The notes under the pieces: model-generated
Told to the model about the DNA's origin: nothing
What the model saw: only the letters and a program-made list of their open reading frames with translations
Databases searched by the model: none
Translations under genes and position numbers: made by a program
From: Embleya hyalina
Lineage (GTDB): Bacteria; Actinomycetota; Actinomycetes; Streptomycetales; Streptomycetaceae
Assembly (NCBI RefSeq): GCF_003967355.1
Contig: NZ_BIFH01000018.1
Span: forward strand, 274,352 to 338,351
Reading direction: 5' to 3'
Length of the DNA stretch: 64,000 nt
Shown: one piece after another, positions 14,115 through 35,713 of the stretch
How the letters are laid out: the number at the start of each line of letters is the position of its first letter
How positions within the stretch are numbered: the stretch's first letter is position 1

Positions 14115-14134
14115 GGTCACCAGGATATCCATTG

Positions 14135-14179: not shown

Positions 14180-14254
14180 TTATTTTTCCCGGCGGCCGGT
14201 CCACGCCCCGTGCGTGGTCCGTCCCGCCGTTTCGGTCGCCGAGGAGGCGGAACC

Positions 14255-15184: not shown

Positions 15185-16458
15185 CGACGGTGCGCGACGC
15201 GGCGCCGGAGGGCGGGACGCGCGGTCGTGACCTCTTCGACGACCGGCGGTTCCGACTCCTCTTCCTGGCGCGCTCGATCTCCGTACTGGCCGCCGCCTTC
15301 GGCCCCGTGGCGCTGGCCTTCGGTGTCCTGGACCTGCCGGGCGCGAGTGCCACGACGCTGACGGTCGTGCTGACCGCGCAGACGGTGCCGCAGATCGCCC
15401 TGATGTTGTTCGGCGGGGTCGTCGCCGACCGGATCTCCCGCACCCGGCTGATGCTGACGGCGGAACTGGCCTCCGCCGCGGCGTTCTTCGGCCTCGCGAC
15501 GATGTTCGTCACCGGACACGCGCCGGTGTGGGGCATCGCGCTCCTCGCCGCCGCCACCGGCATCGCACTCGCGCTCTACTACCCGGCGCTCACCGGCGTG
15601 GTGCCCGAGATCGTCCGGGACGAGCACCTTCAGACGGCGAACGGCGTGCTGCGCCTGGGCGTCAACAGCGCGCGCCTGCTGGGCATGGCGGCGGCGGGCG
15701 GCGCGGTGGCGCTGCTGGGGGCCGGGTGGGCGTTGGCGGTGAACGGTGTCGGGCTCGTGGTGTCCGCGGCACTGCTCGCCGCCCTGCGCCCGACCCCCGG
15801 GACGGGTCGGAGGCGGACCTCCATGATGAGCGATCTCCGGGAGGGCCGACGGGAGTTCGCGTCCCGCCGCTGGTTGTGGGTGATCGTCCTCCAGTTCTCC
15901 TTCGTGATCGCCGCGATGCAGGCCGCCTTCGGTGTCCTCGGTCCTGTGGTCGCGAAGGCCGATCTCGGCGGAGCCCCGGCCTGGTCGGCGATCCTGGTCG
16001 GACAGGGCCTCGGCACACTCGCGGGTGTCTTCCTGGCCATCCGTCTCCGTCCCCGCCGCCCCCTGCTGGTGGCCACGTCGATGGTCTTCGCGGTGGCCCT
16101 GCCGATCACCCTTCTGGGCATCGGCGCCCCGGTATACGTCGTCGCCCTCGGCGCGTTCGTCACCGGCGCGGCCTTCGACGTCTTCGGCGTGATGTGGGAG
16201 ACCACGATGCAGCGGGAGATACCGCGCGAGGCGCTGTCGCGCGTGGCGGCGTACGACGGGCTCGGCTCGTTCATGTTCGGGCCGCTGGGCCTCGTCGCCG
16301 CCGCCCCCCTCGCGGACGCCGTCGGCGCGCATCACGCGCTGCTGCTGTGCGCGGCGCTGATCGTGCTGGTGACGGTGGGAGCACTGGCCGTCCCCGAGGT
16401 GCGAAACCTCCGCGCCCCGACACATGTGGTCGACAGCCGGGCCCTCACGTCGGGGTGA
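15181..16458 (+). CDS. MFS transporter
   Basis: 425-residue major facilitator with about 11-12 hydrophobic segments and the inter-helix 2/3 motif GGVVADRISRTRLML. It is of the enterobactin-exporter/DHA3-like type. GTG start overlapping the quinone reductase stop. Likely exports a toxic compound sensed by the TetR at 13467. It converges with, and overlaps by 14 bp, the alcohol dehydrogenase gene of the biosynthetic cluster; whether it also exports the cluster product is unknown. Confidence 0.9.
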   Translation: MTTVRDAAPEGGTRGRDLFDDRRFRLLFLARSISVLAAAFGPVALAFGVLDLPGASATTLTVVLTAQTVPQIALMLFGGVVADRISRTRLMLTAELASAAAFFGLATMFVTGHAPVWGIALLAAATGIALALYYPALTGVVPEIVRDEHLQTANGVLRLGVNSARLLGMAAAGGAVALLGAGWALAVNGVGLVVSAALLAALRPTPGTGRRRTSMMSDLREGRREFASRRWLWVIVLQFSFVIAAMQAAFGVLGPVVAKADLGGAPAWSAILVGQGLGTLAGVFLAIRLRPRRPLLVATSMVFAVALPITLLGIGAPVYVVALGAFVTGAAFDVFGVMWETTMQREIPREALSRVAAYDGLGSFMFGPLGLVAAAPLADAVGAHHALLLCAALIVLVTVGALAVPEVRNLRAPTHVVDSRALTSG

Positions 16459-17491
16459 CCAGGACCTTCAGGGCGCTGCGCTCGTCCATGGCCCGGTATC
16501 CGTCGGCGATCGATTCGAGCGTGATCGCGCTGTCGAACACCGGTGAGGGGTCGAGGGTGCCGTCGAGCACGCGCGGCAACAACTCGGGGATGTAGGACCG
16601 GACGGGCGCGATGCCGCCCCGCAGGGTGAGGTTGTTCATGAACAGCGCGCCGACGTCCAGTCCCTCGCCGCTGCCGTGCGGGGCGCCCACCCATCCGATC
16701 GCGCCGCCCGGGCGCGTGACGCCGACGGCGGTACGCATCGCCTCCGCGCTGCCGACGGCCTCGATCGCCGCGTGCACACCGTGCCCGCCCGTCGCCTCGC
16801 GCACCGCCGTCACGGCCGCCTCACCGCGTTCGGTGATCGTGTCGGCGGCGCCGAACTCGCGGGCGAGGCGCAGGCGGTCCGGGTGTCGGCCCAGCGCGAT
16901 CACGTGCTCCGCGCCGAGCAGTCGGGCGGCCAGGACGGCGCACAGCCCGACCGCGCCGTCGCCGACCACGGCCACCGTCGCACCGGGTCGCGCGCCGGCG
17001 CTCACCGCCGCGTGGTGGCCGGTACCCATGACGTCGGTCAACGCCAGCAGGCCGCGCAGCAGTCGCTCGTCCGAGGCGGCCCCGGCGGGCACCTTGACCA
17101 GGGTCCCGTCGGCGAACGGCACCCGGACGCCCTCGCCCTGGCCGCCGTCGGACCCGACCGCGCCCCACATCCCGCCGTTCGTACAGGAGGTGGGCAGGCG
17201 CTCGGTACAGAACACGCAGGCCCCGTCGGACCAGGTGAACGGCGCGAGGACCAGATCGCCGGGGCGCACCGAGCGCACCCGGGAGCCGGTCGCCACGACG
17301 GTGCCGACGAATTCGTGCCCGATGCGCTGTCCGGGCACCCGGGCGGACTGCCCCCGGTAGGCCCACAGGTCGCTGCCGCACACGCATGCGCGCAGAACGT
17401 GGACCACGGCGTCGTCGGGCTGTTCCACGCGCGGGTCGGGTACGTCCTCGACCCGGATGTCATAGGGGCCGTGAATGGTGGTGGCGCGCAT
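16445..17491 (-). CDS. Zinc-dependent alcohol dehydrogenase
   Basis: 348-residue MDR alcohol dehydrogenase. Catalytic-zinc segment CVCGSDLWAYRG and GHEFVG near residues 35-65; the structural zinc loop is incomplete (ACVFCTERLPTSC: two close Cys and one distal instead of four). The NAD(P) loop is VVGDGAVGLCAVLAA. It is the last gene of a leftward group; its start lies inside the 3' end of the PaaZ-like gene (32-bp overlap). In context it could reduce the aldehyde delivered by the thioester reductase at 20689 to an alcohol, or oxidise a pathway alcohol. Confidence 0.9.
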   Translation of the reverse strand: MRATTIHGPYDIRVEDVPDPRVEQPDDAVVHVLRACVCGSDLWAYRGQSARVPGQRIGHEFVGTVVATGSRVRSVRPGDLVLAPFTWSDGACVFCTERLPTSCTNGGMWGAVGSDGGQGEGVRVPFADGTLVKVPAGAASDERLLRGLLALTDVMGTGHHAAVSAGARPGATVAVVGDGAVGLCAVLAARLLGAEHVIALGRHPDRLRLAREFGAADTITERGEAAVTAVREATGGHGVHAAIEAVGSAEAMRTAVGVTRPGGAIGWVGAPHGSGEGLDVGALFMNNLTLRGGIAPVRSYIPELLPRVLDGTLDPSPVFDSAITLESIADGYRAMDERSALKVLVTPT

Positions 17492-19502
17492 GTGTCGTGT
17501 CCTTGTCCCCGGCGTCGGTGGGCCGGTCGGCGGTGAGGGTGACGAGGTCGAAGTCGGCGACCGGTCGGGCGTTTTGGTTGACGATCTCGACATGCCAACG
17601 CACTTCGCCGTGCCGGGCACCGGGGCGGGGGGTGATCCGCCGGGCGGTCAGGGTGACGGTGAGTGCGTCGCCCGGGCGCACCGGGGCCAGGAAGCGCAGG
17701 TTCTCCAGGGCGCGGTTGGCCAGGACGGGTCCGGGTTCGGGTGGGACGAACATGCCGGCCGCGAGGGACAGCACCAGGTAGCCGTGCGCGACGATTCCGC
17801 GAAACAGCGGATGCCCGGCCGCGCCGGCCTCGTCGGTGTGCAGGTAGTAACGATCGCCGGTGAGTTCGGCGAAACGGTCGATGTCGTCCCGGGTGACCGT
17901 GCGCGGGCCGACCGTCACGGCGTCGCCGGCGCGCACCTCGCCGAGCCGGCGGCGCAGGGGGTGTGTGGGGCCGTACACGCGCGGGGCGCCCGGCTCCCAT
18001 CGGTCGGTGACCGCCGCCAGGTGCCCGGGCGAGGCCAGGACGTGCGTTCCGCTCGGTCGGCGAAGGAACGCACCGAGGTCGTCCGGGTCGTACGGAGCGC
18101 TCGGCTCGGCGGACGGCGCGTGCGGGTCGACGATCTCGACGCGGCTGTGCGTCGGCGTCAGCGCGCGGACCAGGTCGCGGGCCGTCGCGGGATCCTCGGT
18201 GACCACCCACCCGTGCAGGTCGCGACCGCCGAGGGTGAGCACGTCGCGGATGTCGGCCGAGGAGCGGTACGGCAGCAGCGTGCCGACCGGCCCGAACGCC
18301 TCCACCTCGTGCACCTCGCGGCGTCCGGGGTCGTCGGCGACCAGCAGCACCGGCGGCAGGTAGGCGCCGAACCGCCCCTCGTCGGCCACCGCGGCGATCC
18401 GCCCCGGCGTGCCGCGAATCGTCCGGGTCGCCCCGCGCAGCCGGGCGACACCGACCAGGACACGCCGTCGATGCGAAGCGTCGATCAGCGGCCCCATGCC
18501 CGCCCCGGGCGTGTCCGGGTCACCCGGTCGCACCTCGTCCAGGGCGGCGGCCACCGCCTCGGCCACCACGTCCACCAGCGGCGCCGGCACGAAGGCCCGC
18601 CGCACCGCCGCCCTCGTCTGCCCCGTGTACGCCGTTATCGCGGCCACCAGCCGATCCACGAACACCGCGAAGGCCGCCGTGCCCGGTACCCCGTCGACGC
18701 CGAGGACCGCGCAGTCCAGGGCGTCGGTGGCGAAGTCCTCGCGCGGCGCGGCCCGGAGCGTCGCGAGCCGACCGCGCACCCGCCGGGCGGTGGCCGACGT
18801 CCCGGTGAAGCCGAGCAGGTCGTGCGCGGTGAGATGGTCGGCCAGGCGGGTCGGCCCGGATACGAACTGGAGCGCCCCGTCCGGGATTTCCCCACTCTCG
18901 ACGATCCCTCGGACCAGGTGGGCCACCACCTGCGCGGTGCGGTGCGACGGCCGGACGACGACCGGCACGCCCGCGACGAACGTGTCGGCGAAGGCGCCGA
19001 GCAGGCCGGTCGCGGGCAGGCTGAAGCCGCCGATCCGCACCGCGACACCGGGCGGCGCGTCGAGCACCGACCGGCTCGCCGAACCCCGTGCCCCGGGGCC
19101 GTCGTCCACCAGGAGCCGCCCGTCCGCCGTGGCACCGCCGTCGGCCAGTCGTCGGGTGATCGCCGCGGCGCGCCGCCGCATCGCCTCCAGCCCGCCGTCG
19201 ATGTCCCGTACGGCGTCGGCCGACGAGGTGCCCAGGTGGGCGAGGAGGCGTACGAACTCCTCCCGCCGGCCCGCGAGAAGGCGGGCCAGTCGGTGCAGCG
19301 ACCGGGCCCGCTCGGCGAAGTCGGTGCCGCGCAGCGCGGGGATGCCCACCGTCCGGGCGTACGCGAAGGCCGGGGCGGCGTCGATCCCGGTCGTGGTGAC
19401 CCGGAAGACCTCGTGTCCGTGCACCGCGTGTCGGCGCGCGATCCCGCGGTCGGCGGGCGGCTGCCGGCGGCCGCACAGGTAGTGCGGCACCGGGCCGCTC
19501 AT
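17460..19502 (-). CDS. PaaZ-like fusion: degenerate ALDH plus MaoC hydratase
   Basis: 680 residues, the length of PaaZ (oxepin-CoA hydrolase / semialdehyde dehydrogenase of the phenylacetate pathway) with the same domain order: ALDH (about 1-515) then MaoC hot-dog (about 520-660). The ALDH catalytic Cys of PaaZ (in AGQKC) aligns with Arg297 (TGQTR), the general base Glu (in EADSLN) with Ala258 (ATDALD), and the NAD-site Asn with Ser161. The dehydrogenase half therefore looks dead. The hydratase dyad is kept: Asp550 and His555 in TGDRYYLH. Likely a hydratase/dehydratase or ring-opening hydrolase acting on a CoA or ACP thioester. The start overlaps the stop of the AraC fusion gene (ATGA). Confidence 0.85.
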   Translation of the reverse strand: MSGPVPHYLCGRRQPPADRGIARRHAVHGHEVFRVTTTGIDAAPAFAYARTVGIPALRGTDFAERARSLHRLARLLAGRREEFVRLLAHLGTSSADAVRDIDGGLEAMRRRAAAITRRLADGGATADGRLLVDDGPGARGSASRSVLDAPPGVAVRIGGFSLPATGLLGAFADTFVAGVPVVVRPSHRTAQVVAHLVRGIVESGEIPDGALQFVSGPTRLADHLTAHDLLGFTGTSATARRVRGRLATLRAAPREDFATDALDCAVLGVDGVPGTAAFAVFVDRLVAAITAYTGQTRAAVRRAFVPAPLVDVVAEAVAAALDEVRPGDPDTPGAGMGPLIDASHRRRVLVGVARLRGATRTIRGTPGRIAAVADEGRFGAYLPPVLLVADDPGRREVHEVEAFGPVGTLLPYRSSADIRDVLTLGGRDLHGWVVTEDPATARDLVRALTPTHSRVEIVDPHAPSAEPSAPYDPDDLGAFLRRPSGTHVLASPGHLAAVTDRWEPGAPRVYGPTHPLRRRLGEVRAGDAVTVGPRTVTRDDIDRFAELTGDRYYLHTDEAGAAGHPLFRGIVAHGYLVLSLAAGMFVPPEPGPVLANRALENLRFLAPVRPGDALTVTLTARRITPRPGARHGEVRWHVEIVNQNARPVADFDLVTLTADRPTDAGDKDTTHARHHHSRPL

Positions 19503-20497
19503 GATCGGCCCCCTTCGCCGGGCGCGCACAGGGCGGGTCGCCGTGCCGCGGGATCCGCCGGTTCGGGCGCTCCGACGTCGTTCGGCGTGAATCCGGCCCG
19601 CGCCGCAGATCGGAACACGGAAGGTGACAGCGAGTAGGTCGCCTTGAAAGTGCGCTGGAAATGACTGAGGTCCCGATAACCGACCCGCAGGCAGATGTCG
19701 GCCACCGGCAGATCGCTTTCCAGCAGGAGTGAACGCGCGAGTTCCATCCGGAGTTCCGTGACGAAATCGATGAATCTGTGACCGGTTCGTTTCTTGAAGG
19801 TCCGCGAGAAGTGGTATTTGCTCATGTGCGCGGCCCGGGCGGCCAGTCCGAGGGTCAGTTCGTTGTCGGCGAATTTCTCCCGGATGAAGGACACGGCGGA
19901 GTCGACCTGTTCCGCCACCGGGTCGGCCGCGGGGAGTTCGGCGGCGGGTGTGTTCGGCGCGTCCGCACGCAACCGGCCGGTGAACCAGAGCAGTTCCTCG
20001 ACGAAGCCGCTCAGCGTGCCGGGCGGCGGCTCGGCCCGTGCCGCACGCCGCCGCGGGACGGCGGCCGGAGGGCCGGGTACGGTCAGCGCGCTGGGGATGA
20101 CCACCGCGTCCAACGCGGCCAGCACGACCCGGAGATGGTCCACCGCGTGGGTCCCGCGCGCGGCACCCACCGAGACCAGGCCCACCGGTTTGCGCCGCAC
20201 CGGGCCGCCGGCCAGGTGGTCGAGGGCGAGTTTGATCTCGCCGGAAAAGGAGTTGTTGCGTACGGCGGTCAACAACACCAGCGCGTGGGCGCCGGCCGCC
20301 GAGGCGCGAAGTCGCTCGCGGGGTACGGCGTCACGGCCGGCCGGCCCGACCCGAAGCCACTCGGGTCGACGGCCGGCGACCGTGCCGATCATGGTGTCCA
20401 GGCCCGGAAGGAGCCGTGTTCCGTCGAAGGAATGCTCCGGAGTGTCACTGACGATGAGAACGGCAGGAGGAATCGTTAATGCGAACCGCTGAACCAT
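19499..20497 (-). CDS. Flavodoxin-like/FMN-reductase domain fused to AraC regulator
   Basis: 332 residues. Residues about 10-175 follow the NADPH-dependent FMN reductase pattern: IVSDTPEHS in place of the FMN loop GSxRxxS, ALVLLTAVRNNSFSGEIKLA, then KPVGLVSVGAARGTHAVDHL. Residues about 199-300 form a double AraC HTH (LGLAARAAHMSKYHFSRTF and VADICLRVGYRDLSHFQRTF). I know of no standard family with this architecture. It may sense a flavin, redox state or pathway intermediate. ATG at 20497 follows GGGGAG. It is coupled to the PaaZ-like gene downstream and lies within the cluster, so it is the probable cluster regulator. Confidence 0.85.
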   Translation of the reverse strand: MVQRFALTIPPAVLIVSDTPEHSFDGTRLLPGLDTMIGTVAGRRPEWLRVGPAGRDAVPRERLRASAAGAHALVLLTAVRNNSFSGEIKLALDHLAGGPVRRKPVGLVSVGAARGTHAVDHLRVVLAALDAVVIPSALTVPGPPAAVPRRRAARAEPPPGTLSGFVEELLWFTGRLRADAPNTPAAELPAADPVAEQVDSAVSFIREKFADNELTLGLAARAAHMSKYHFSRTFKKRTGHRFIDFVTELRMELARSLLLESDLPVADICLRVGYRDLSHFQRTFKATYSLSPSVFRSAARAGFTPNDVGAPEPADPAARRPALCAPGEGGRS

Positions 20498-20688
20498 GAT
20501 CGAGCTCCCCGTGGATCGTGTCTCGAGAAGACTAGGGAGACGCGCGTCAAGGCCGTGTGAGCGTTGTCCGCGGCCCAGTCGGTTGTTCCTTACGCCGACG
20601 ATACGAATCGGCCGGTCGGCGCGTCGGTCGAATGGGCGGGACGGGAAACGGCCGAAATCCCGATCGTTGCCGAAAATTCGGTGGACCG

Positions 20689-21921
20689 TCATGCCGGGAA
20701 TCGTGGTGCGGCGGCCGGCAGGAAACCCACCGACTCGAAGTAGTCGAGATGGGCGTCGATCAGCCCGCCGTCGAGCGGCGGGCACCCGACGCCGGTCTCG
20801 TCCGCCTCGGCCGGATCGCCCCGCGGGTCGGCGACGGGCGGTCGAGCGGTTCCGTCGAGCAGCGCCCGGTACGACGTCAGCAGCAGGCTCGCCCGGGTGA
20901 GCGCGCCGTCGTGCCCGTGCCGCGCGTCCCACAGCCGCGCGCACCACTCGTCGGGCGGTACCACGGCGAGGGGGAAGCGCCGCGCCACGTGTTCGAGCAG
21001 CGTGCGCAGCGGCATCGCGGCGGAGTTGAGCAGATAACGCACGGGTGCGCCGGACGGGATGTCGGGGTGCCGACGCACGATGGCACGCGCCACATGGTCC
21101 ACGGGTGTGAAGGACACCCGGGAGGCGGCGGCGTCGGGCACCGCCCCCAGGAGCACCACCGCGCGTACGAGATTCCAGATGGCGTCGTCGAGTTGGCACG
21201 CGCCCGTGACCGAGTGGCCGCCGATCCGCCCGGGGCGGTACACGGCGACCGGCACACCCCGCTCGCCGGCCTGGTGCACCAGCCGCTCCGCGACCCATTT
21301 GCTCGTGACGTAGCCGGTCGCTCCCGGCCCGGACGGCGGGGGTCGCCCGGCGGGATCGGCCGGGTCGCCGGACAGCGCGGCGGTGGAGACGAAGTGCACC
21401 GGCTTGACGTGGTCCGCACAGGCCAGCCGCAACACCTCGGCGGTACCGCGCACATTGGCGTCCCGCAACGGCGCGTAGCCCGCGACGTGCCCGACCCGCG
21501 CCCCGCAGTGCTGCACGACGTCGACACGTTCGGCGAGTCTGGACCACGATCGTGGGGCCAGACCCAGGCGCGGCCGGGTCAGGTCGCCCGCGACCGGGAC
21601 GATCCGGGCGGCCGTGTCGGTGTCCCACAGCAGGTAGCGCCGCATCGTCTCCTGGAGGCGTCGGCGCGCGTGTTGCGGGCTGTCGGCGCGGACCAGGCAC
21701 CACACGTCGTCGTCGGTGCGGTCCAGGAGTTCGCGCAGGAGGAAGGCGCCGAGGAAGCCGGTCCCGCCGGTGAGCAGGACCCGGCGGTCGGACGTGGGCC
21801 GTCGCGGGGCGGACGGGGCGGTCGGGACGATGTCCGGGTCCAGCAGCGCGTCCGCGCGCGGATCCGCGCCGCGTGCCGCCGGGCCGGTTCGGGTGGGGTC
21901 GGGGACGGCGTCGCGGATCAC
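20689..21921 (-). CDS. Free-standing thioester reductase (SDR_e)
   Basis: 410-residue extended SDR resembling the C-terminal reductase domains of NRPS/PKS and carboxylic acid reductases. TGGTGFLG (51-58) binds NADPH; Thr180 (FVSTAA), Tyr204 and Lys208 (GYVTSKWVAE) are the catalytic triad. The first 45 residues are a Pro/Arg-rich extension. It should release an ACP-bound acyl chain as aldehyde (or alcohol after a second round). GTG start overlaps the stop of the transacylase gene. No thioesterase is present in the cluster, which supports reductive release. Confidence 0.9.
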   Translation of the reverse strand: MIRDAVPDPTRTGPAARGADPRADALLDPDIVPTAPSAPRRPTSDRRVLLTGGTGFLGAFLLRELLDRTDDDVWCLVRADSPQHARRRLQETMRRYLLWDTDTAARIVPVAGDLTRPRLGLAPRSWSRLAERVDVVQHCGARVGHVAGYAPLRDANVRGTAEVLRLACADHVKPVHFVSTAALSGDPADPAGRPPPSGPGATGYVTSKWVAERLVHQAGERGVPVAVYRPGRIGGHSVTGACQLDDAIWNLVRAVVLLGAVPDAAASRVSFTPVDHVARAIVRRHPDIPSGAPVRYLLNSAAMPLRTLLEHVARRFPLAVVPPDEWCARLWDARHGHDGALTRASLLLTSYRALLDGTARPPVADPRGDPAEADETGVGCPPLDGGLIDAHLDYFESVGFLPAAAPRFPA

Positions 21922-22856
21922 GCGAGGCCGCCCGCGCGTTCGCGGCGGTCGGCCGGATTCGGCGCCGTCGAGCCCGCGGCCGCTTCGCCGACGCCGACGA
22001 AGGGCATCGTGCGATCCCGGCGGCCGAGTCGGAGCAGGGTGTCCCCGGGGCCCGCGTCGATCAGTCCGGGCACGCCCAACTCGCGCACCGTGCGCAGCGC
22101 CTCGTGCCAGCGGACCGGCAACACCAGTCCCCGCGCCAGCCGTTCGCGCACCTCGTCCGGGTCGGTGTGCGCCCGTGCGTCGATCGCCGAGACGAACCGC
22201 GCGGTGCCCGGGCGAAAACGCACGGCCGCCAGCCGGGCGCGCCAATCCGGGACCGCGTCCATCATGAGCGGACTGTGGAAACCCCCGGCGATGGGCAACG
22301 GCTCCGCGCGCAGGCACAGTTCGGCGGCCAGCCGCACCGTCTCGCGCACGGCCGCCGGGTCGCCGGACAACACCACCTGGCGCGCGCTGTTCAGGCCGGC
22401 GATCTCCAGGAGGCCGCCGCGCTCGGCCAGTACGCGGCGGCGCAGCCACTCGATGTCGGCCGGCCCGGCGCCCACCACGGCGACCATGGCGCCCGGCCGG
22501 CGGAGGTTCTGCGCCCGGCACAGCGCGCCCCGTGCGAGCGCCAGGTCGAACGCGTCGCGGGTGTCCAGGAATCCGGCGCACGCGGCGGCGGTCAGTTCGC
22601 CGAGGCTGTGTCCGACCGTCACCGCCGGCCGGGCGGCCGGTCCGAAGGCGGCCTCGACGGCGGCGATGCCCGCGGCGCACATGGCCGGCTGGTTGACGGC
22701 CGTGTCGGCCAGGTCCAAGGCGCCCGGGTCGGCCGCGTCGAAGGTGTCGAGCAGCCGGGCCACGAGCGGGTGCCGGCGGTGCGTGCGCAGGGCCCCGGCG
22801 AGGACGGCGGCCTTGCCGCCCTGGCCGGGGAAGGCGATGCCGAAAGTGGTGGTCAC
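21918..22856 (-). CDS. Malonyl-CoA:ACP transacylase (FabD-like)
   Basis: 312-residue acyltransferase. PGQGG at 10-14, the nucleophile Ser84 in GHSLGE, Arg109 in LARG (carboxylate contact in malonyl-specific enzymes) and His194 in GGFHSPLM are all in place. It loads malonyl units on the cluster ACPs. Clusters of type II PKS often borrow this enzyme from fatty acid synthesis, so a dedicated copy is notable. GTG start overlaps the FAD-oxidoreductase stop. Confidence 0.92.
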   Translation of the reverse strand: MTTTFGIAFPGQGGKAAVLAGALRTHRRHPLVARLLDTFDAADPGALDLADTAVNQPAMCAAGIAAVEAAFGPAARPAVTVGHSLGELTAAACAGFLDTRDAFDLALARGALCRAQNLRRPGAMVAVVGAGPADIEWLRRRVLAERGGLLEIAGLNSARQVVLSGDPAAVRETVRLAAELCLRAEPLPIAGGFHSPLMMDAVPDWRARLAAVRFRPGTARFVSAIDARAHTDPDEVRERLARGLVLPVRWHEALRTVRELGVPGLIDAGPGDTLLRLGRRDRTMPFVGVGEAAAGSTAPNPADRRERAGGLA

Positions 22857-24031: not shown

Positions 24032-24089
24032 CGCGAACTCCTCGCTCCCGAACGCCACGTGTCGGGCCGCTCGGGGGTCGGGTGGGCGG

Positions 24090-24836: not shown

Positions 24837-24837
24837 G

Positions 24838-25089
24838 TCAGGCCGTCCCGAGTCGGGCCGACAGGACCGCGTGTACGGCGTTCACCGAGGTGAGTTCGGC
24901 GAATTCGGCCTCGGCGAGCCGGACCCCGTAGCGCTTCTCCAACTGCACCACGAGTTCCATGGTGGTGAGCGAGTCGATGCCCAGGTCGACGGCGAACTCG
25001 GCGTCGTAGGGCAGTAGTTCGTCGGTGAGTTCGAGTTCTTCGACGAAGAAGTCGCGCAGTTCCTCGCGGGTGGGCGCGGGCTTGGTCAT
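24838..25089 (-). CDS. Acyl carrier protein
   Basis: 83 residues with the phosphopantetheine site Ser40 in DLGIDSLTTMEL. Length and pattern are those of a discrete type II ACP. ATG overlaps the stop of the ketosynthase-like gene upstream (ATGA). No phosphopantetheinyl transferase is encoded in the window, so a housekeeping one must serve it. Confidence 0.93.
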   Translation of the reverse strand: MTKPAPTREELRDFFVEELELTDELLPYDAEFAVDLGIDSLTTMELVVQLEKRYGVRLAEAEFAELTSVNAVHAVLSARLGTA

Positions 25090-28331: not shown

Positions 28332-29539
28332 CACGTCGCCTTCCCCACGACGGCGACGGCGTTGATCCCGCCGAGGCCGATCGCGTGGATCTGGGCGGTG
28401 GTGAAGTCGCCGAGGGCCGGCCCGCCCGCGACCAGGCGCAGGTCCCGGGCCTCGGGGATCGGCCGGCGCAGGTCGGTGATCGGCGGAAGTACTCCCGATT
28501 GCAGGGCGAGCACCGCGACGACCAGGCTCATCAGCCCGGAGCCGCCGCAGGTGTGTCCGAGGCCGGACTTGATCGAGGTGACCAGTGGACCGGGCCGCAC
28601 CGGCCCGAACACCTCGCCCAGGACCCGGGACTCGACCACGTCGTTGTGGTGGGTACCGCTGCCGTGCACGACGACCAGGTCGACGTCCTCGGGTCGGATC
28701 GCGGCCCGCCGGTGGGCCTCGCGCACGGCCGAGGTCACGCTCGCCGGGTCGGGCACCGTCGGATGGGTGGCGTCGCAGTTCATCGCGACGCCGCGCACCC
28801 GGGCGTGCGCGGGTCGGTGGTGGGTACCGGCACGGCGTACGACGACGGCCACCGCGCCCTCGCCCATGACCATGCCCCGGCGGTCCCGATCGAACGGGCG
28901 CACCGACCGCGGCGCCGGGTGCTGCACGCGGTCGAGCCCACCGAAGGCGCTCTCGGTGAGCGAGTCGGTGCCGGCCACCACGACGGTCTCGGCCGCGCCG
29001 AGCGCGATCAGGTCGGTGGCCATGCCCAGGGCGTACAGGGAGGCGGCGCACGCGCTCGCCACGGTGTGGGTTCGGACGGTGCCGAACGCGTCGCGCATGA
29101 TCCGGGCGAAGTGCAGGTCGGCGGGCCGGAGTTCGCTGCCGTCGCGCCACCACAGCTCGGCCGAGCGCGACTCGCGCAGGGTGGTGCCGACAAGCACCGG
29201 GATGTCCGCGATCCCGCCGAATCGCGAGCCGCCCGGATCCCCGTCCGTATCCGCCGCATCGGCCGGTCCCGCATCGGCCGGTCCCGCATCGGCCAGTCCC
29301 GCGTCCGCGAGCGCCGCGGCCACCGCCGCGCGCAGCCAGCGGCTCGCCCGGCCGGGCTCGTCGCGGCCCGGCACGGCCCGATCGTCGATCTCGTACGCGT
29401 TCTGCACCCGGAACGCGGCGCGGTCGAAGGCGCGCAGCGGAGCGACCCCGCTCTCGCCGCGGCACAGTGCCTCGTGGATCGCCCGAGGTTCGTCCGCCAG
29501 GCAGGACACCGCGCCCATGCCGACGATGTCCCAGGTCAT
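28331..29539 (-). CDS. Beta-ketoacyl-ACP synthase (KAS II/KS-alpha type)
   Basis: 402 residues with Cys164 (TVASACAASLYAL), His292 (VVHGSGTHHND), Lys324 and His329 (SIKSGLGHT). It is an active-looking ketosynthase distinct from the one at 26135. Residues about 78-95 are an Ala-Asp-Ala-Gly-Pro repeat encoded by a 15-bp tandem repeat, an insertion in a surface region. ATG overlaps the stop of the CoA ligase gene. Confidence 0.92.
   Translation of the reverse strand: MTWDIVGMGAVSCLADEPRAIHEALCRGESGVAPLRAFDRAAFRVQNAYEIDDRAVPGRDEPGRASRWLRAAVAAALADAGLADAGPADAGPADAADTDGDPGGSRFGGIADIPVLVGTTLRESRSAELWWRDGSELRPADLHFARIMRDAFGTVRTHTVASACAASLYALGMATDLIALGAAETVVVAGTDSLTESAFGGLDRVQHPAPRSVRPFDRDRRGMVMGEGAVAVVVRRAGTHHRPAHARVRGVAMNCDATHPTVPDPASVTSAVREAHRRAAIRPEDVDLVVVHGSGTHHNDVVESRVLGEVFGPVRPGPLVTSIKSGLGHTCGGSGLMSLVVAVLALQSGVLPPITDLRRPIPEARDLRLVAGGPALGDFTTAQIHAIGLGGINAVAVVGKAT
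29256..29300. repeat. 15-bp tandem repeat, three copies, inside a ketosynthase gene
   Basis: Three copies of GCATCGGCCGGTCCC (third with one change) encode Ala-Asp-Ala-Gly-Pro units in frame. Copy-number change would keep the reading frame, so the length of this linker may vary between strains. Confidence 0.85.
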
Positions 29540-31035
29540 CGTGCCTCCTCGGGGGTGCGCAGTCGATGGCGGGCGAGTTTGCCGGTGGAGGTGGTCGGGA
29601 GCGTGTCGATCGGTTCGATCCGCGAGGGGCGCCGGTGCGGCGGCAAGCCGTCGCGGATGGCGCGCAGGGCACTTCGGCGCACCTCCTCCGGCGCGGCGCC
29701 GGGTAGCGAAACGACGTAGGCGACGGCCTGTTGCAGACCGGCCGGGTCGCGGTCGGCGACGACGGCGCAGTCGGCGATGCCGTCGGTCGCCTTCAGCAGC
29801 GCCTCGATCTCCGCCGGCGCGACCTTGTGGCCGCCGATGTTGAGCAGGTCGTCCGTACGGCATACGTGCCGGAAGTCCCCGTCGGGCGTGCGGTACACGA
29901 CGTCCCCCGGGTAGACACCGCCGTCGGCGAACGTGCCCGCCTGGGCCTCGGGTCGATCGATGTAGCCGAGCGCGGCGGACGCGGACACGATGTGCAGCCG
30001 GCCGTGCGTCCCGGTCGGCACCGGTCGCCCGTGGTCGTCCCGGACGGTCGCCGTCACGCCCGACACCGGGACACCGGTGGAGTCGCGCGGCGGGGCGCCG
30101 GCCGCGGTGGCCAGCACGATGTGCAGGACCTCGGTCGCGCCGAAGCCGTTGACCAGCGGGAACCCGAAGCCCTCGGTCGCCCGGCGGGCGAGATCGGCGG
30201 GCAGGTGCTCGCCGGCGGCGACCGCGAGGCGGACGCGGGAGGTGTCCGGCGCGGCTCCTCGCGTGGCGACCGCGCTCAGCAGGGATTCGTACACCCTCGG
30301 CACGGCGCACAACACGGTCGGCCGGTACCGGTGGATCGCGGTGATCACGGTGAACGCGTCGACCGGACCGGCGAGCAGCGCCGAGCAGGCGCCCGCCGCG
30401 AGGGGGAACAGCAGCGAATTGCCGAAGCCGTAGCCGAAGGAGAGCTTCGCGGTGGACAGTACGGTGTCCGCCTCGGTCAGTGCGAGCACGCCGCCGAATC
30501 CGGTCAGCACGGCGCGAATCCCGCTCATGGAGTGCCGGACGCCACGCGGGCGGCCGGTGCTGCCCGAGGTGTACTGCACCAGTACCTCGGATCCCTCCGC
30601 GAATGCCGCCGGAGCACCGGGCTCGACGAACTCGGCGGCACTGTCGCGCAGTTCATGGCGGAGGGCGACGGGACCCAGGGCCGCCGACAGTGCGTCGCGG
30701 CGTTCGCGCGAAAGGTCGAGGTCCGCGTATTCGGCGGCGCAGTCCCGGGCGATGAACGCGAGTTCGGCGTCACGGAGCATCGGGCCGAGCACGACCGGCA
30801 CACATCCGTGCCACCACAGGCCCAGGACGGCCACGACCGCGTCCGCCGTGTCGTCGGAGACCACCAGCGCTCGGGCACCCGGGCGGATCCCGCCGGCGGC
30901 CAGCGTGCCGGCGTATTCGCTCGCCGCCTCGGCCAGTTCGGTGTAGGTCATGGTGCCGGCGCGGTCGACGAGGCTTGTGCGGTCGCCTCGGCCGGCGGCG
31001 ATGTGCCGTAGCAGGAGCAGGTCGACGGGGTTCAT
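29536..31035 (-). CDS. Benzoate-CoA-ligase-like AMP-binding enzyme
   Basis: 499-residue acyl-adenylate enzyme. VQYTSGSTGRPRGVRH is the ATP/phosphate loop, NGFGATEVLHI the A5 motif, YPGDVVYRTPDGDF and CRTDDLLNIGGHKVAPAEIE the hinge region, and TTSTGKLARHRLR holds the catalytic Lys. It most resembles benzoate/4-hydroxybenzoate-CoA ligases. With an anthranilate synthase in the same cluster, 2-aminobenzoate is a reasonable substrate. Its start overlaps the stop of the ligase-ACP fusion. Confidence 0.9.
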   Translation of the reverse strand: MNPVDLLLLRHIAAGRGDRTSLVDRAGTMTYTELAEAASEYAGTLAAGGIRPGARALVVSDDTADAVVAVLGLWWHGCVPVVLGPMLRDAELAFIARDCAAEYADLDLSRERRDALSAALGPVALRHELRDSAAEFVEPGAPAAFAEGSEVLVQYTSGSTGRPRGVRHSMSGIRAVLTGFGGVLALTEADTVLSTAKLSFGYGFGNSLLFPLAAGACSALLAGPVDAFTVITAIHRYRPTVLCAVPRVYESLLSAVATRGAAPDTSRVRLAVAAGEHLPADLARRATEGFGFPLVNGFGATEVLHIVLATAAGAPPRDSTGVPVSGVTATVRDDHGRPVPTGTHGRLHIVSASAALGYIDRPEAQAGTFADGGVYPGDVVYRTPDGDFRHVCRTDDLLNIGGHKVAPAEIEALLKATDGIADCAVVADRDPAGLQQAVAYVVSLPGAAPEEVRRSALRAIRDGLPPHRRPSRIEPIDTLPTTSTGKLARHRLRTPEEAR

Positions 31036-33101
31036 CGGGAGGCTCCCCGGTCGGTGTGCGGGCCGGTGCGCGGGTCGGCGCCGGTGGCGATGCCATGGCC
31101 GACGCCGTGTCGTCGCAGTGCGGCGAGCACGTCGGTCAGACAGTCCAGTTCGGCCGCCTCCTCGACGGCGAACCGCACCCCGAAGGCGCGTTCGACGCGC
31201 GCGACGAATTCGGTCTTCCGGAGCGAGTCCATCTCCAACCGCGCGTGGAAGGCCGCGTCGGGCGCGATGAGTTCGGGCTCCGCCTCCAGGACGGTGGCGG
31301 CGATCGCGCGTACGGTCGCCTCGGGGGTGCTCGGGTGGGTCATGGGATCCTCCTGCGGGGGGCCGCTCGACGGCCGGACGACGGCCTGCGGCGCCTGTGG
31401 TGCGTGGGTCGACCGGTTCGGCAAGTCGCGGTATTTCTCCCGTAGTTGCCGTTTCAGCACCTTCCCCGTCACGCCGACGGGCAGGTCCGCGTCGTCGGTC
31501 GCGATGTCCAGGAAGGCCAGGTCGGGTTGGCCGGCCGCGGCAAGCGCGGTGTTGGCCCGGGCGAGCAGTGCGGCCGGGTCCGCGCCGTCCTCGCGCAGCC
31601 GGACCACCGCCACCGGCACGCTCGCGTCGTGATCGCCTCCCGCCACCACGGCGCAGTCGGCCGCCTCGGGCAGGGCGAGCAGGATCACCTCCTCCATCAG
31701 GACCGAGTGGCCCGGCGATTCGCGGGTGTGGATGGTGTCGACGACACGATCGACGTGGAAGTAGTGGTTCTCCGCGGTGCGGCGCACCAGGTCCCCGGAG
31801 AGGAACCAGCCGCCGAGGAAGCTGCGATGGTAGGTGTCCGAGTCGTTCCAATAGCCGGTGGTCACCGACTCGCCGCGGACACCGAGCAGGCCCACCTCGC
31901 CCACGTCCGCGTGGCTGCCGTCCGCCCGCAGGACGGCCACCTTCATCGCGGAGCCGGGCCTGCCGAGGTGGCGCGGGGACGACGGCGTGTCGCGTGTCGT
32001 GGAGCGGCGCAGTGCCGCCCAGCCCAGTTCGGACGAGCCGAGGATGTCGTTGAAGACCGAGCCCGGTACGGCGTTGCCCCCGATCGTGCGCCCGCCCATC
32101 CGGACCAGGCGACGCACGTGCGCCTCGTGCGCGGAGTCGCCCACGTTCACCCAGTCCGTCACGGACGCGAAGTTCGCCGGGTCCGGCTCCGAGACCGCGA
32201 GTTCGGCCAGCGTGTGGTTGAAGGCGAAGATCGTCGTCGGCCGGTGCGCGGCGGCGGCGCGGGCCAGTCCGGCCGCGCCGCGATCGGCGGAGGCGACCAT
32301 CGGCAGACCGGCCGCCAGCGCGAAGAAGGTGATCGCGATCGCGGCCCCGTGGCTGAGCGGGGCCGCGCACAGCAGCAGCGAATCGTCGGGTTCGGGCTGG
32401 TTGGCGAGTCGGAACCGGGTGCCCGCGACGCTCTGCCGGTGGGTCCAGGTGACCAGCTTGGGCCGGCCGGTGGTACCCGACGAATGGCACAGGAACACCG
32501 GGTCGTTGTCGCCGTGCCGGAACCTCGCTCCGTCCGGCAGGGTGGAGTTGCCGGGGCCGGGTACGTCGGCGCGGGTGAACGTCCAGCGCAGGCCGCTCAG
32601 TTCCCGATGGCGGCCGGCGAGGAGGTCCAGGTGCGCGGGGTCGGTGTACAGGCCGACCGGGTCGGCGCGATCCAGCAGACCGAGCGCGAGCTCGGGCGGC
32701 ATCCGGCCGTTGACGACGACCGCGATGGCGCCGATCCGGGCCAGGGCGGCCAGGTGTACGTGGTCCTCGAAGGAGTCGTCGAGGTAGACGGCGACCCGGT
32801 CGCGCGGTCGTACGCCTCGATCGAGGTAGTGGCACGCCCACGCCTCGGCGAGGGCGTCGAGTGCGGCGATGCCGAACTCCCGTTGGGGTGTTCCGTCGCC
32901 GACCACGAGCGGCGGATCCGATACGAGCAGGGGCGCGTCGGGGGCCCGGCTGTGCTCCAGCGCGATGCGCCAGAGGTTGCCACCCCCGAGGCGGGGGTCC
33001 CGGGCCAGGGCGATACGGGCCGGTCGTGGGAGCAGGGTGTGTCGGGCGGACAACAAGAGGATCCCCGATTCGCGGTGGGAGGACGGGAAGTACGCACGCA
33101 C
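31032..33101 (-). CDS. Acyl-CoA/ACP ligase fused in frame to an ACP
   Basis: One uninterrupted frame of about 689 residues: an AMP-binding domain (ATP loop LCHSSGTTGRPKLVTWTHR, A5 GSSELGW, A7 FLSGDLVR, A10 Lys in GVTGKVLKRQLREKYR) ending near residue 565, a Pro/Ala/Ser linker, and an ACP of about 100 residues with Ser in LEMDSLRKTEF. Inside the linker an ATG at 31343 has a near-perfect ribosome site, so a free ACP could also be made. The GTG start at 33101 is a best guess without a good ribosome site. It is the first gene of the leftward operon and probably activates and self-loads the starter unit. Confidence 0.83.
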   Translation of the reverse strand: MRAYFPSSHRESGILLLSARHTLLPRPARIALARDPRLGGGNLWRIALEHSRAPDAPLLVSDPPLVVGDGTPQREFGIAALDALAEAWACHYLDRGVRPRDRVAVYLDDSFEDHVHLAALARIGAIAVVVNGRMPPELALGLLDRADPVGLYTDPAHLDLLAGRHRELSGLRWTFTRADVPGPGNSTLPDGARFRHGDNDPVFLCHSSGTTGRPKLVTWTHRQSVAGTRFRLANQPEPDDSLLLCAAPLSHGAAIAITFFALAAGLPMVASADRGAAGLARAAAAHRPTTIFAFNHTLAELAVSEPDPANFASVTDWVNVGDSAHEAHVRRLVRMGGRTIGGNAVPGSVFNDILGSSELGWAALRRSTTRDTPSSPRHLGRPGSAMKVAVLRADGSHADVGEVGLLGVRGESVTTGYWNDSDTYHRSFLGGWFLSGDLVRRTAENHYFHVDRVVDTIHTRESPGHSVLMEEVILLALPEAADCAVVAGGDHDASVPVAVVRLREDGADPAALLARANTALAAAGQPDLAFLDIATDDADLPVGVTGKVLKRQLREKYRDLPNRSTHAPQAPQAVVRPSSGPPQEDPMTHPSTPEATVRAIAATVLEAEPELIAPDAAFHARLEMDSLRKTEFVARVERAFGVRFAVEEAAELDCLTDVLAALRRHGVGHGIATGADPRTGPHTDRGASR
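31343..31354 (-). promoter_or_regulatory. Internal ribosome site before the ACP domain
   Basis: On the minus strand AGGAGGA lies 4 nt before an in-frame ATG (sequence AGGAGGATCCCATG) at the exact beginning of the ACP domain. This is stronger than any ribosome site at the start of the fused gene and would let a separate 103-residue ACP be translated from the same frame. Confidence 0.6.
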
Positions 33102-33436: not shown

Positions 33437-35713
33437 ATGGGGATGCCGGAAATGTTCGCCGTCGGGACCGCCGACACCGCCCGGGAGTCGTCCTGGCTCG
33501 TGCCGAGCGGCATCCGGGTGCGCCGATCGTCGATGTACGCGGGACCCGCGCGCCCCGCGCTCGCGGCGCTGGAGGAACGGCTCGATCGGCGTCGCGGCCT
33601 GCTCGCCCACATCGGGGACGGAACGGTCGTGGGCTACGCCGACCCGCCGATCGAGGTGACCGCCCGCGGTTCCCGGCTGGCCGTACGGGCGCTGAACGCC
33701 CGCGGCCGGGTGCTGCTCCCCGCGCTGTCCCGGGCGACGGCCGGCCTCCTGCACGATCGGGAGGTCCGCGCGGACGGGGTGTACGGGATCGTGCCGAGTC
33801 CGGACGAGGCGACCGCCGAGGAGGACCGCACCCGCCGGGCCGGCGTCTTCACCGTGCTCCGGGCCCTGGTGGACACGATGCGCTCGCCCGCCGACCCGTG
33901 CCTGGGCCTGTACGGCGCCTTCGGCTACGACCTGATCCTGGGCATCGAGGGCATCACCGTCGCACACCAGCGCGATCCCGCCGACCGCGTGCTCGTCCTG
34001 CACCTCCCGGACGAGGTACTCGTGGTGGACGCGCGCAACGGCTCGGCGATCCGGCACCGGTACGAGTTCCAGGACGGTCGCGCGCACACCGACGGACTGC
34101 CCCGGACCACCCCCGACGCCGCCTTCCGACCCGGCGGCCCGGTCGCCGAGGACGACCACGCTCCCGGCGAGTACGCCCGGGTCGTCGAGCGGGCCCGGGC
34201 GGCCTTTCACGCCGGGGACCTGTTCGAGGTCGTACCCGGCCGGGAGTTCCGCCGCCCCGCGACCGCGCCGCCGTCCGCGGTGTACCGGCGGCTGTACGCC
34301 CGCAATCCGGCCCCGTACGCGCTGTTGATGAATCTCGGCGAGCGCGAGCACCTGATCGGGGCGTCACCCGAGCGGTTCGTCGCGGTCCACGAGGGAGGCG
34401 ACACCGCGCACGGCCGGCACCTCGTCGTGGAGTCCGCCCCGATCAGCGGCACGATCGCGCGCGGCCGCGACGCGCTGGAGGACGCGGTCCGGGTCCGCCG
34501 GCTCCTGGAATCCGAGAAGGAGGAGTCCGAACTCACCATGTGCACCGACGTGGACCGCAACGACAAGGCGAAGGTGTGCGTACCCGGGAGCATCAGGGTC
34601 ACCGCGCGGCGCCGCGTCGAGTTCCACGCCACGCTGATCCACACCGTCGACCGGGTCGAGGGCCGGTTGAGACCCGAACTCGACGCCCTGGACGCGTTCC
34701 TGGCCCACCTGTGGGCGGTCACCGTCACCGGCGCGCCGAAGCGGGCCGCGGTGCAATACCTCGAACGCGCGGAGAGGTCGCCTCGGCGCTGGTACGGCGG
34801 AGCCGTCGGCCGGATCCGCTTCGACGGCGGGCTGGACACCGCGCTCACCCTGCGCACGATCCAGATCCGTCGCGGAACCGCCGTCGTCCGCACCGGAGCG
34901 ACGCTGCTGTGCGCGTCCGACCCCCGGGCGGAGGAGGCCGAGACCGAACTCAAGGCCCGAGCGCTGCTGGCCGTCCTGGACGAGGAGCGGCCCGAGGTTC
35001 CGGACGGGGAGCGGACACTCGAGGCTCGGCTTCCCGCCGCGGTACCGGTCCCGCCGGCTCCCCGGCCCAGGGTCCTGATGGTCGACCACCAGGACTCGTT
35101 CGTGCACTGCCTGGCCGACTACTTCCGCCAGTGCGGCGCCGACGTGGCCACGTTCAGGCCGCCGCACCACCTCGCCGTCCTGGAGCGCACCCGGCCGGAC
35201 CTGCTGGTGTTGTCGCCCGGTCCGGGGCGTCCGGGCGACTTCGGCATCGGCGAGACCCTGGCCGCGGCCGAGGCGTTCGACACCCCGGTCTTCGGGGTGT
35301 GTCTCGGACTGCAGGGCCTCGTCGAATACCTGGGCGGCACGCTCGACGTCCTGGACCGCCCCGCCCACGGGCGATCCTCGCGCGTGCGGGTCACCGATCC
35401 CGGCAGCAGGCTGCTCGCCGGCCTCCCGGACACGTTCGAAGTCGGCCGCTACCACTCCCTGTACGCGGCGGCGAGGAACCCGCCGCCGCGACTGCGGGTC
35501 TGCGCCACCACGGACGACGGCATCGCGATGGTCGTCGAGCACACCGAACGCCCGCTCGCCGCCGTGCAGTTCCACCCCGAATCGATCATGACGGCCCAGG
35601 CCGCCGTCGGCCGCACCGTCATCGCCAACGCCCTGACCCACCTGGCCCGCCGGCCGAACCGCGCCACCGCCCCGACCGCGCCCACACCCATCCGCATCCG
35701 CCCGACCGGCTGA
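33437..35713 (+). CDS. Fused anthranilate synthase (TrpE-TrpG)
   Basis: 758 residues: chorismate-binding domain (about 1-515; PISGTIARGRD, MCTDVDRNDKAKVC, TVTGAPKRAAVQYLE) and glutamine amidotransferase domain (about 545-745; Cys622 in GVCLGLQGL, His713 and Glu715 in QFHPES). It converts chorismate and glutamine to anthranilate. Fused TrpEG forms of this type are typical of some alphaproteobacteria and of streptomycete secondary-metabolite clusters, whereas primary streptomycete TrpE and TrpG are separate. The LLES tryptophan-binding motif is not found; SSMYAG is at that region. Likely supplies anthranilate to the divergent operon. Confidence 0.93.
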   Translation: MGMPEMFAVGTADTARESSWLVPSGIRVRRSSMYAGPARPALAALEERLDRRRGLLAHIGDGTVVGYADPPIEVTARGSRLAVRALNARGRVLLPALSRATAGLLHDREVRADGVYGIVPSPDEATAEEDRTRRAGVFTVLRALVDTMRSPADPCLGLYGAFGYDLILGIEGITVAHQRDPADRVLVLHLPDEVLVVDARNGSAIRHRYEFQDGRAHTDGLPRTTPDAAFRPGGPVAEDDHAPGEYARVVERARAAFHAGDLFEVVPGREFRRPATAPPSAVYRRLYARNPAPYALLMNLGEREHLIGASPERFVAVHEGGDTAHGRHLVVESAPISGTIARGRDALEDAVRVRRLLESEKEESELTMCTDVDRNDKAKVCVPGSIRVTARRRVEFHATLIHTVDRVEGRLRPELDALDAFLAHLWAVTVTGAPKRAAVQYLERAERSPRRWYGGAVGRIRFDGGLDTALTLRTIQIRRGTAVVRTGATLLCASDPRAEEAETELKARALLAVLDEERPEVPDGERTLEARLPAAVPVPPAPRPRVLMVDHQDSFVHCLADYFRQCGADVATFRPPHHLAVLERTRPDLLVLSPGPGRPGDFGIGETLAAAEAFDTPVFGVCLGLQGLVEYLGGTLDVLDRPAHGRSSRVRVTDPGSRLLAGLPDTFEVGRYHSLYAAARNPPPRLRVCATTDDGIAMVVEHTERPLAAVQFHPESIMTAQAAVGRTVIANALTHLARRPNRATAPTAPTPIRIRPTG

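What the first reader, a model, noticed from the sequence alone, without database searches (positions are those of the whole stretch)
16445..35713. Unassigned type II PKS cluster with aryl-starter activation, paired ketosynthases and reductive release
Seen: one coupled operon with ligase-ACP, benzoate-CoA-ligase-like enzyme, two active KS plus two Cys-less KS homologues, ACP, KR, FAD enzyme, malonyl transacylase and thioester reductase; next to it an AraC fusion, a PaaZ-like hydratase and an ADH; divergently a TrpEG anthranilate synthase. There is no aromatase/cyclase, no thioesterase and no PPTase. Known families: fused TrpEG supplies anthranilate in secondary metabolism; KR plus MaoC gives alkenes; thioester reductase releases aldehydes. 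Inference: an anthranilate-primed, reduced or polyene type II polyketide released as aldehyde or alcohol. I cannot match it to aurachin (no prenyltransferase), phenazine or aryl-polyene sets.
Basis: partly seen in the sequence, partly recalled or inferred. Interest (0 to 1): 0.85.

Follow-up and report, generated by a model that had tools for sequence, protein, structure and literature searches.

The report
Diazotase-equipped anthranilate-primed polyketide gene cluster
This 15-gene bacterial cluster looks like an assembly line that starts from anthranilate, lengthens it with two pairs of chain-building enzymes and carries a probable nitrogen-nitrogen bond-forming enzyme fused to the starter's carrier protein, so it probably makes an unknown nitrogen-rich compound of a recently recognised family.

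Summary
The same 15 genes, TrpEG included, lie between unrelated flanks in Embleya sp. NBC_00888 (86-88% DNA identity). Fourteen (no TrpEG) form a block in Yinghuangia seranimata and Nonomuraea jabiensis. The cluster can be placed: the "ligase-ACP" belongs to the nitrous-acid-dependent diazotase clade (CmaA6/AvaA6/Tri17) and is fused to the starter carrier protein. Relatives at 53-61% identity sit beside the same aryl ligase, KS and CLF in 12 of 13 loci examined; one (Streptomyces TP-A0873) also has TrpEG and nitrosuccinate lyase. So this is a new variant of the avenalumate/p-coumarate/spinamycin type of highly reducing type II PKS. New features: starter ACP moved onto the diazotase, second KS/CLF pair, thioester reductase plus ADH, and a PaaZ relative whose dehydrogenase half is dead in 4 of 4 clusters while the hydratase Asp/His remain. 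Most likely product: an anthranilate-primed, reduced chain, diazotised on its carrier and released as aldehyde or alcohol. Against: no nitrite genes in the cluster (candidates lie elsewhere in this genome and Yinghuangia, not clearly in Nonomuraea), and a Leu in the diazotase pocket motif in 4 of 4, seen in 0 of 30 others. Product and chemistry are inferred.

The parts
16445..17491 (-). ADH, zinc-type medium-chain dehydrogenase
   Evidence: PF00107 92 bits, PF08240 65 bits; kept in 4 of 4 clusters
17460..19502 (-). PaaZ-like protein: ALDH half without catalytic Cys and Glu, MaoC hydratase half with Asp/His kept
   Evidence: TIGR02278 523 bits, below its 562.8 cut-off; C295->R, E256->A by alignment to E. 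coli PaaZ and to 31 PaaZ of the same class
19499..20389 (-). FMN_red-AraC regulator fusion (start uncertain)
   Evidence: PF03358 55.6 bits and PF12833 86.5 bits on the same ORF
20689..21921 (-). TR, thioester reductase (Male sterility/NAD_binding_4)
   Evidence: PF07993 225 bits; YVTSK motif
21918..22856 (-). MAT, discrete malonyl transferase, MdcH/FabD-like
   Evidence: PF00698 78 bits; TIGR03131 153 bits, below cut-off
22853..24058 (-). FAD oxidoreductase, GG-reductase/group A superfamily
   Evidence: PF01494 65.8 bits; homologues at 59% and 53% in the G007 and G214 KS clusters
24090..24836 (-). KR (FabG-like)
   Evidence: PF13561 204.6 bits; YxxxK motif
24838..25089 (-). extender ACP
   Evidence: PF00550 49.5 bits; extender ACPs of related clusters score higher with it than with the fused ACP in 6 of 6
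25086..26138 (-). CLF2, Cys-less KS homologue (start uncertain)
   Evidence: PF00109 31.9 bits; no catalytic Cys/His
26135..27424 (-). KS2, active-type ketosynthase (start uncertain)
   Evidence: PF02801 102.7 bits; Cys/His/His present
27324..28310 (-). CLF1, Cys-less KS homologue (start uncertain)
   Evidence: PF00109 49.4 bits; no catalytic Cys
28331..29539 (-). KS1, active-type ketosynthase
   Evidence: PF02801 93.3 bits; Cys/His/His present
29536..31035 (-). BzL, aryl acid ligase (benzoate-CoA ligase-like), likely starter loader
   Evidence: TIGR02262 303 bits, below its 375 cut-off; a homologue adjoins KS1 in related clusters
31407..33044 (-). diazotase-type domain of the ligase-ACP protein (gene 31032-33101)
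   Evidence: NF058622 356.5 bits (cut-off 975), next family 144; PDB CmaA6 and Tri17 among the best by sequence and best by model
31098..31328 (-). starter ACP fused to the diazotase C-terminus
   Evidence: PF00550 38.8 bits; starter-type ACPs score higher with it than with the extender ACP in 11 of 12
33437..35713 (+). TrpEG, fused anthranilate synthase, divergent
   Evidence: TIGR01815 830 bits (cut-off 739) and NF010081 888 bits (cut-off 645); best matches in the 3 other held genomes of the genus are partial, 39-42%; kept in Embleya NBC_00888

Best explanation
A diazotase-dependent, aryl-amine-primed, highly reducing type II PKS cluster, a new variant of the ava/cma/spi type. Proposed course: TrpEG makes anthranilate. 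BzL adenylates it and loads it on the ACP fused to the diazotase. KS1/CLF1 and then KS2/CLF2 extend it with malonyl units from MAT. KR reduces each keto group, and the MaoC half of the PaaZ-like protein dehydrates it, its dead ALDH half serving as scaffold. The diazotase converts the aryl amine, still near or on its carrier, to a diazonium with nitrous acid made elsewhere in the genome by CreE/CreD homologues. TR releases an aldehyde, which ADH may reduce to the alcohol; the FAD enzyme adjusts oxidation state. Shown by sequence: the gene set, intact or lost active-site residues, family placement, cluster borders, a CreD-family gene (over its cut-off) with a CreE-like neighbour elsewhere in the genome. 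Inferred: substrate, order, chain length, nitrite use, product.
For: The diazotase domain's best NCBIfam family is AvaA6 3-aminoavenalumate diazotase, 356.5 bits against 144 for the next. By sequence the PDB gives 9xb8 (492 bits, named FadD; title not seen), 8ztz (308) and 9bq0/8tf7 (284); the next is 77. By model (mean pLDDT 80.3) the best entries are CmaA6 (Z 43.6 and 42.2) and Tri17 (42.7, 42.1), then acyl ligases at 37.0 or less. Loci with relatives at 53-61%: BzL and KS1 homologues in 12 of 13, aryl-amine genes in 6 of 13; for relatives at 44-48%, 8 of 8 have a chorismate-type synthase (28-32% to TrpEG) in the stretch (counted by eye; L012 left out as the same record as L136, and L146 and L147, 37-39%, not counted). 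L011 has TrpEG, diazotase, BzL, KS1, CLF1, KR, a CreE-like protein (my reading; no NCBIfam hit at 1e-20) and CreD at 775.6 bits, cut-off 650. Own genome: homologue of that CreE-like protein at 65% and CreD at 717 bits, adjacent on another contig. CreD over cut-off in 15 of 22 genomes with a diazotase of 44% or more against 104 of 372 others, Fisher P 1.7e-4, relatedness not corrected. Starter-type ACPs score higher with the fused ACP than with the extender ACP in 11 of 12 tests.
Against: No CreE/CreD in the cluster. Those of this genome sit in a set (DAHP synthase, EntA-, PhzD-, PhzE-like, with an AMP ligase nearby) like the penzonemycin cluster, so they may serve that one. N. jabiensis has no CreD over the cut-off, best 447 bits. 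Seven of the 22 diazotase genomes also lack it. The diazotase is below the curated AvaA6 cut-off of 975. Four of four cluster diazotases have Leu in a pocket motif where the 30 other rows compared have Gln (23), Gly (5) or His (2); L013 and L101 are the same gene. The resulting PLSH looks acyl-ligase-like (recalled). TrpEG adjoins in only 2 of 4 clusters. Only 2 of 21 related loci show CreE/CreD inside the stretch fetched. Seven of 13 close loci show no aryl-amine gene.
Confidence: 0.6

Rival explanations
1. The diazotase relative has become an aryl-ACP ligase: the protein loads its own fused ACP, no N-N bond is made, and the cluster yields an anthranilate-primed reduced polyketide aldehyde or alcohol. 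Two ligases would then activate starter or a second acid.
For: Leu in the pocket motif in 4 of 4 and in 0 of 30 others. Ligase and ACP are fused. No nitrite genes in the cluster, and no CreD over cut-off in N. jabiensis.
Against: CmaA6 and Tri17 stand well above acyl ligases by sequence and model. Adenylation motifs (SGTTGxPK, the Glu of GSSELG, the C-terminal Lys) are shared with the diazotase relatives, though acyl ligases have such motifs too. A dedicated aryl ligase (BzL) is already present, as in ava/cma where A1 loads and A6 diazotises (PMC10777205).
Confidence: 0.22
2. The PaaZ-like protein diverts oxepin-CoA of phenylacetate catabolism to the cycloheptatriene/tropone precursor, as proposed for PaaZ2 beside the tda genes of Phaeobacter, and the cluster builds on or adds a seven-membered ring.
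For: Catalytic Cys is Arg in 4 of 4 clusters and in a Phaeobacter plasmid PaaZ taken to be PaaZ2 (its neighbours are not named tda in the record) (review PMC7497051, passage). The own genome and Yinghuangia carry paaA/paaC by Pfam and neighbours I read as paaBDE, K, N and others, and no other PaaZ at E 1e-30, so oxepin-CoA can probably be made.
Against: The loss looks convergent: the Phaeobacter protein groups with Paracoccus PaaZ, not with the cluster clade. Around the hydratase His the cluster clade has YYLH in 4 of 4, where 31 of 31 PaaZ of the class and the Phaeobacter protein have FYAH, which points to a changed substrate. No acyl-CoA-dehydrogenase-type (TdaE-like) gene among the Pfam hits. 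No link from a tropone to diazotase or TrpEG.
Confidence: 0.1

Closest known systems
ava (avenalumic acid) and cma (p-coumaric acid) clusters
   Same: Aryl amine starter, acyl-ACP ligase, ACPs, KS-CLF, ATP-dependent diazotase; KR in ava (PMC10777205, first of four parts of the text)
   Different: They use 3,4-AHBA, replace the diazo group with hydride (A7), and list one KS, one CLF and a separate diazotase; here TrpEG, two KS/CLF pairs, diazotase-ACP fusion, TR/ADH, PaaZ-like. A counterpart of A7 was not searched for
spi (spinamycin) cluster
   Same: Aryl polyene, diazotase SpiA7 acting on anilines without hydroxyl, N-N product (review PMC11705231, passages)
   Different: 3-aminophenyl chain and fused SpiED in spi; the spi sequence itself was not compared here
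L011, Streptomyces sp. TP-A0873 locus
   Same: TrpEG 50%, diazotase 61%, BzL 52%, KS1 55%, CLF1 52%, KR 60%
   Different: Has CreE-like/CreD; no match to KS2/CLF2, TR, PaaZ-like or FAD in its 20.8 kb; product unknown to me
G007/G214 KS1-CLF1-KS2-CLF2 clusters
   Same: Both KS/CLF pairs, ACP, KR, FAD enzyme, BzL, separate starter ACP
   Different: No diazotase in the 40 kb fetched; PhzE-like and DAHP synthase, FabI-like reductase, LLM-type oxidoreductase (names from sequence reading)
PaaZ2 of Phaeobacter inhibens
   Same: ALDH catalytic Cys replaced by Arg, hydratase half kept
   Different: Separate lineage; hydratase motif FYAHMD retained there
Aurachin (AuaEII anthranilate-CoA ligase)
   Same: Anthranilate-primed type II PKS (recalled; title of 4wv3)
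   Different: AuaEII is only an acyl-ligase-level match to the diazotase domain (46.6 bits, Z 36.9)

Membership tests
ava/cma/spi-type diazotase HR type II PKS cluster | ATP-dependent diazotase gene | tested here: met
   By clade: NF058622 best family though below cut-off; CmaA6/Tri17 best by model and far above acyl ligases by sequence
ava/cma/spi-type diazotase HR type II PKS cluster | KS-CLF pair, acyl ligase, ACP, KR | tested here: met
ava/cma/spi-type diazotase HR type II PKS cluster | Nitrous acid (CreE/CreD) genes in the cluster | tested here: not met
   Absent in the window cluster; CreD and a CreE-like gene on another contig. PMC10777205 says 72 of 134 ava-related BGCs lack them, so not strictly defining
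ava/cma/spi-type diazotase HR type II PKS cluster | Diazonium is actually formed | not testable with these tools
   Needs enzyme assay
AvaA6 equivalog (NF058622) | Score over 975 bits | tested here: not met
   356.5 bits: same clade, not the same enzyme
TrpEG anthranilate synthase (TIGR01815) | Score over 739 bits | tested here: met
   830 bits
PaaZ (TIGR02278) | Score over 562.8 bits | tested here: not met
   523 bits
PaaZ (TIGR02278) | ALDH Cys295 and Glu256 | tested here: not met
   Arg in 4 of 4 and Ala (3) or Thr (1); Cys and Glu in 31 of 31 controls
PaaZ (TIGR02278) | Hydratase Asp561/His566 | tested here: met
   residue numbers from PMC6739347 passages
Gram-negative aryl polyene (APE) cluster | APE gene set | not tested
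   No APE reference sequence was compared

The most novel reading that the evidence does not exclude
The cluster forms an N-N heterocycle on a carrier protein: the ACP-fused diazotase diazotises the ortho-amino group of an anthranilate-primed chain, and the diazonium (or hydrazine) closes onto the reduced chain or its aldehyde, giving a cinnoline, indazole or 1,2-benzodiazepine. The PaaZ-derived dehydratase and reductive release set the chain for closure.
Probability: 0.18. Interest if true: 0.86.

Novelty: new variant of a known kind. Interest (0 to 1): 0.63.

Why it matters
It gives an orphan cluster a testable chemical class: N-N bond formation on a type II polyketide. The fusion of a diazotase with the starter ACP would make carrier-bound diazotisation testable with one purified protein. 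It also shows a catabolic PaaZ recruited with its dehydrogenase half killed, in parallel with the tropone case.

Tried and rejected
Close analogue of aurachin: the ligase domain is only an acyl-ligase-level match to AuaEII. Tropone as main reading: kept as a rival. C24 locus as the missing half of this cluster: it resembles the penzonemycin set and has an AMP ligase of its own nearby, so only nitrite sharing is proposed. FAD enzyme fold: the model was poor (mean pLDDT 53.5) and was not searched. An NCBIfam name for the CreE-like protein: none at 1e-20.

Literature: eight searches of the open library. No title or abstract start listed there described this gene set; the 12 of 182 papers listed showed none with both PaaZ and type II polyketide. 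Seen of the papers: the first of four parts of PMC10777205; passages only of PMC12664062, PMC11705231, PMC11429834, PMC11481866, PMC6739347, PMC7497051, PMC11110157, PMC9323291 and PMC13061610. The primary papers on spinamycin and avenalumate were not seen, and MIBiG was not available. In one search only chains that Foldseek ranked could appear.

Counts by eye: neighbourhoods (13 + 8 loci; left out: L012, the same record as L136, and L146, L147 at 37-39%); motif letters; the 15 of 22 read and typed into. The 31 PaaZ controls are N. jabiensis PaaZ and the 30 best of 69 matching genomes; two ALDH-only proteins (L151, L153) were left out.
Full report
Observation. Catalytic residues support two active ketosynthases and two CLF-like partners: KS1 and KS2 keep Cys-His-His in the window, N. 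jabiensis and Y. seranimata, and the partners lack the nucleophile Cys.

Borders. A tblastn with the PaaZ-like protein found Embleya sp. NBC_00888, a 5.7 Mb linear replicon, at 81%. Its fetched stretch aligns with window 16452-35680 in four blocks at 86-88%, with no other DNA match at E 1e-10. TrpEG is inside the block. The window's genome is therefore probably Embleya (inference). In N. jabiensis and Y. seranimata the other 14 genes form a block at 53-77% identity; the FMNred-AraC, PaaZ-like and ADH trio lies at the opposite end in N. jabiensis, so it moves as a unit. TrpEG is absent from the surrounding 57 kb in Y. seranimata and 21 kb in N. jabiensis; N. jabiensis has a fused TrpEG far away, Y. 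seranimata showed only partial matches. Three other held genomes of the genus lack close TrpEG, CLF1 and diazotase matches.

Diazotase. The N-terminal part of the ligase-ACP protein scores best with AvaA6 diazotase among NCBIfam families, below the equivalog cut-off. PDB sequence hits are 9xb8 (492 bits), 8ztz (308), 9bq0/8tf7 (284), then 77. The AlphaFold model matches CmaA6 diazotase and Tri17 best, Z 42.1-43.6, against 37.0 or less for acyl ligases. CmaA6 diazotises aryl amines with nitrous acid (PMC10777205); Tri17 is counted among N-N enzymes in PMC11705231 (passages). In 394 family genomes, 123 have a relative at E 1e-60 or better. Neighbourhoods were read for 20 fetched stretches plus L011, L013 and G241; two of these (L146, L147, 37-39%) are not in the counts. 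Of 13 loci at 53-61%, 12 have BzL and KS1; 6 have aryl-amine genes (TrpEG, or genes like the PhzE/PhzD/EntA/DAHP synthase set proposed to make 3-hydroxyanthranilate in the pzm cluster) and 7 show none. Of 8 loci at 44-48%, all have a chorismate-type synthase. The closest parallel, L011, combines TrpEG, diazotase, BzL, KS1, CLF1, KR, a CreE-like protein and a nitrosuccinate lyase at 775.6 bits.

Nitrite. The cluster has no CreE/CreD. The own genome has a homologue (65%) of the CreE-like protein of L011 and CreD (717 bits, over the cut-off) on contig C24, beside DAHP synthase, EntA-, PhzD- and PhzE-like genes; Y. seranimata has both on contig C36; N. jabiensis has no CreD over the cut-off. The name CreE rests on my reading and on its place next to CreD; NCBIfam gave no family at 1e-20. 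Across 394 genomes CreD over cut-off occurs in 15 of 22 with a diazotase of 44% or more and 104 of 372 others, P 1.7e-4, not corrected for relatedness. In print, 72 of 134 ava-related clusters lack avaE and avaD homologues.

Carrier relocation. Starter-type ACPs of related clusters (N-terminal to BzL or free) score higher with the ACP fused to the diazotase than with the window's extender ACP in 11 of 12 comparisons; six extender ACPs go the other way in 6 of 6. So here the starter carrier is on the diazotase instead of on the loading ligase or free. I infer that diazotisation happens on the carrier-bound chain. The caveat is Leu in the pocket motif in 4 of 4, against Gln (23), Gly (5) and His (2) in 30 other rows.

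PaaZ-like protein. Alignment to E. coli PaaZ shows Cys295->Arg and Glu256->Ala (residues from PMC6739347, passages). All four clusters lost both, while 31 of 31 PaaZ of the class keep both. The hydratase Asp and His remain, but the motif is YYLH in 4 of 4 against FYAH in 31 of 31. A Phaeobacter plasmid PaaZ, taken to be PaaZ2, also has Arg for Cys yet keeps FYAH and lies in another clade. I therefore favour dehydratase service for the PKS, which has no other dehydratase among its Pfam hits, and keep tropone diversion as a rival, since paa genes are present in the genome.

Verdict. New variant of the diazotase-dependent highly reducing type II PKS type. Family placement is well supported; anthranilate starter fairly; product, nitrite use, order and chain length are inference.

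Noticed in passing
G000 contig C24, about 253000-261100 (L087): A penzonemycin-like set: DAHP synthase, EntA-, PhzD-, PhzE-like, CreE-like and CreD genes, with an arylamine acetyltransferase-like gene, an AMP ligase and a carboxylic acid reductase-like gene nearby (names mostly from sequence reading).
   Followed up: partly
L052/L053 (G007), L054/L055 (G214), L056/L057 (G035): Related KS1-CLF1-KS2-CLF2 clusters without an adjoining diazotase, with PhzE-like and DAHP synthase genes (G007, G214) and a FabI-like reductase.
   Followed up: partly
G241 (L058/L059), also L129 and by layout L133-L135: Diazotase-KS clusters with hotdog thioesterase-like, MFS and asparagine-synthetase-like genes beside them (sequences read for G241 only), suggesting an amide product.
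   Followed up: no
window 13467-16458: TetR, quinone oxidoreductase-like and MFS genes next to the cluster; not matched beside it in the Embleya NBC_00888 stretch.
   Followed up: partly
G000 contig C18:203000-265200, about 9 kb left of the window: Many ketosynthase matches in very long open frames: a large modular PKS locus lies just upstream.
   Followed up: no
own genome C31 (L166) and Yinghuangia C22 (L167): Phenylacetate catabolism genes (PaaA/PaaC by Pfam, others by reading, including a PaaN-like protein) but no PaaZ at E 1e-30 other than the cluster copy.
   Followed up: partly
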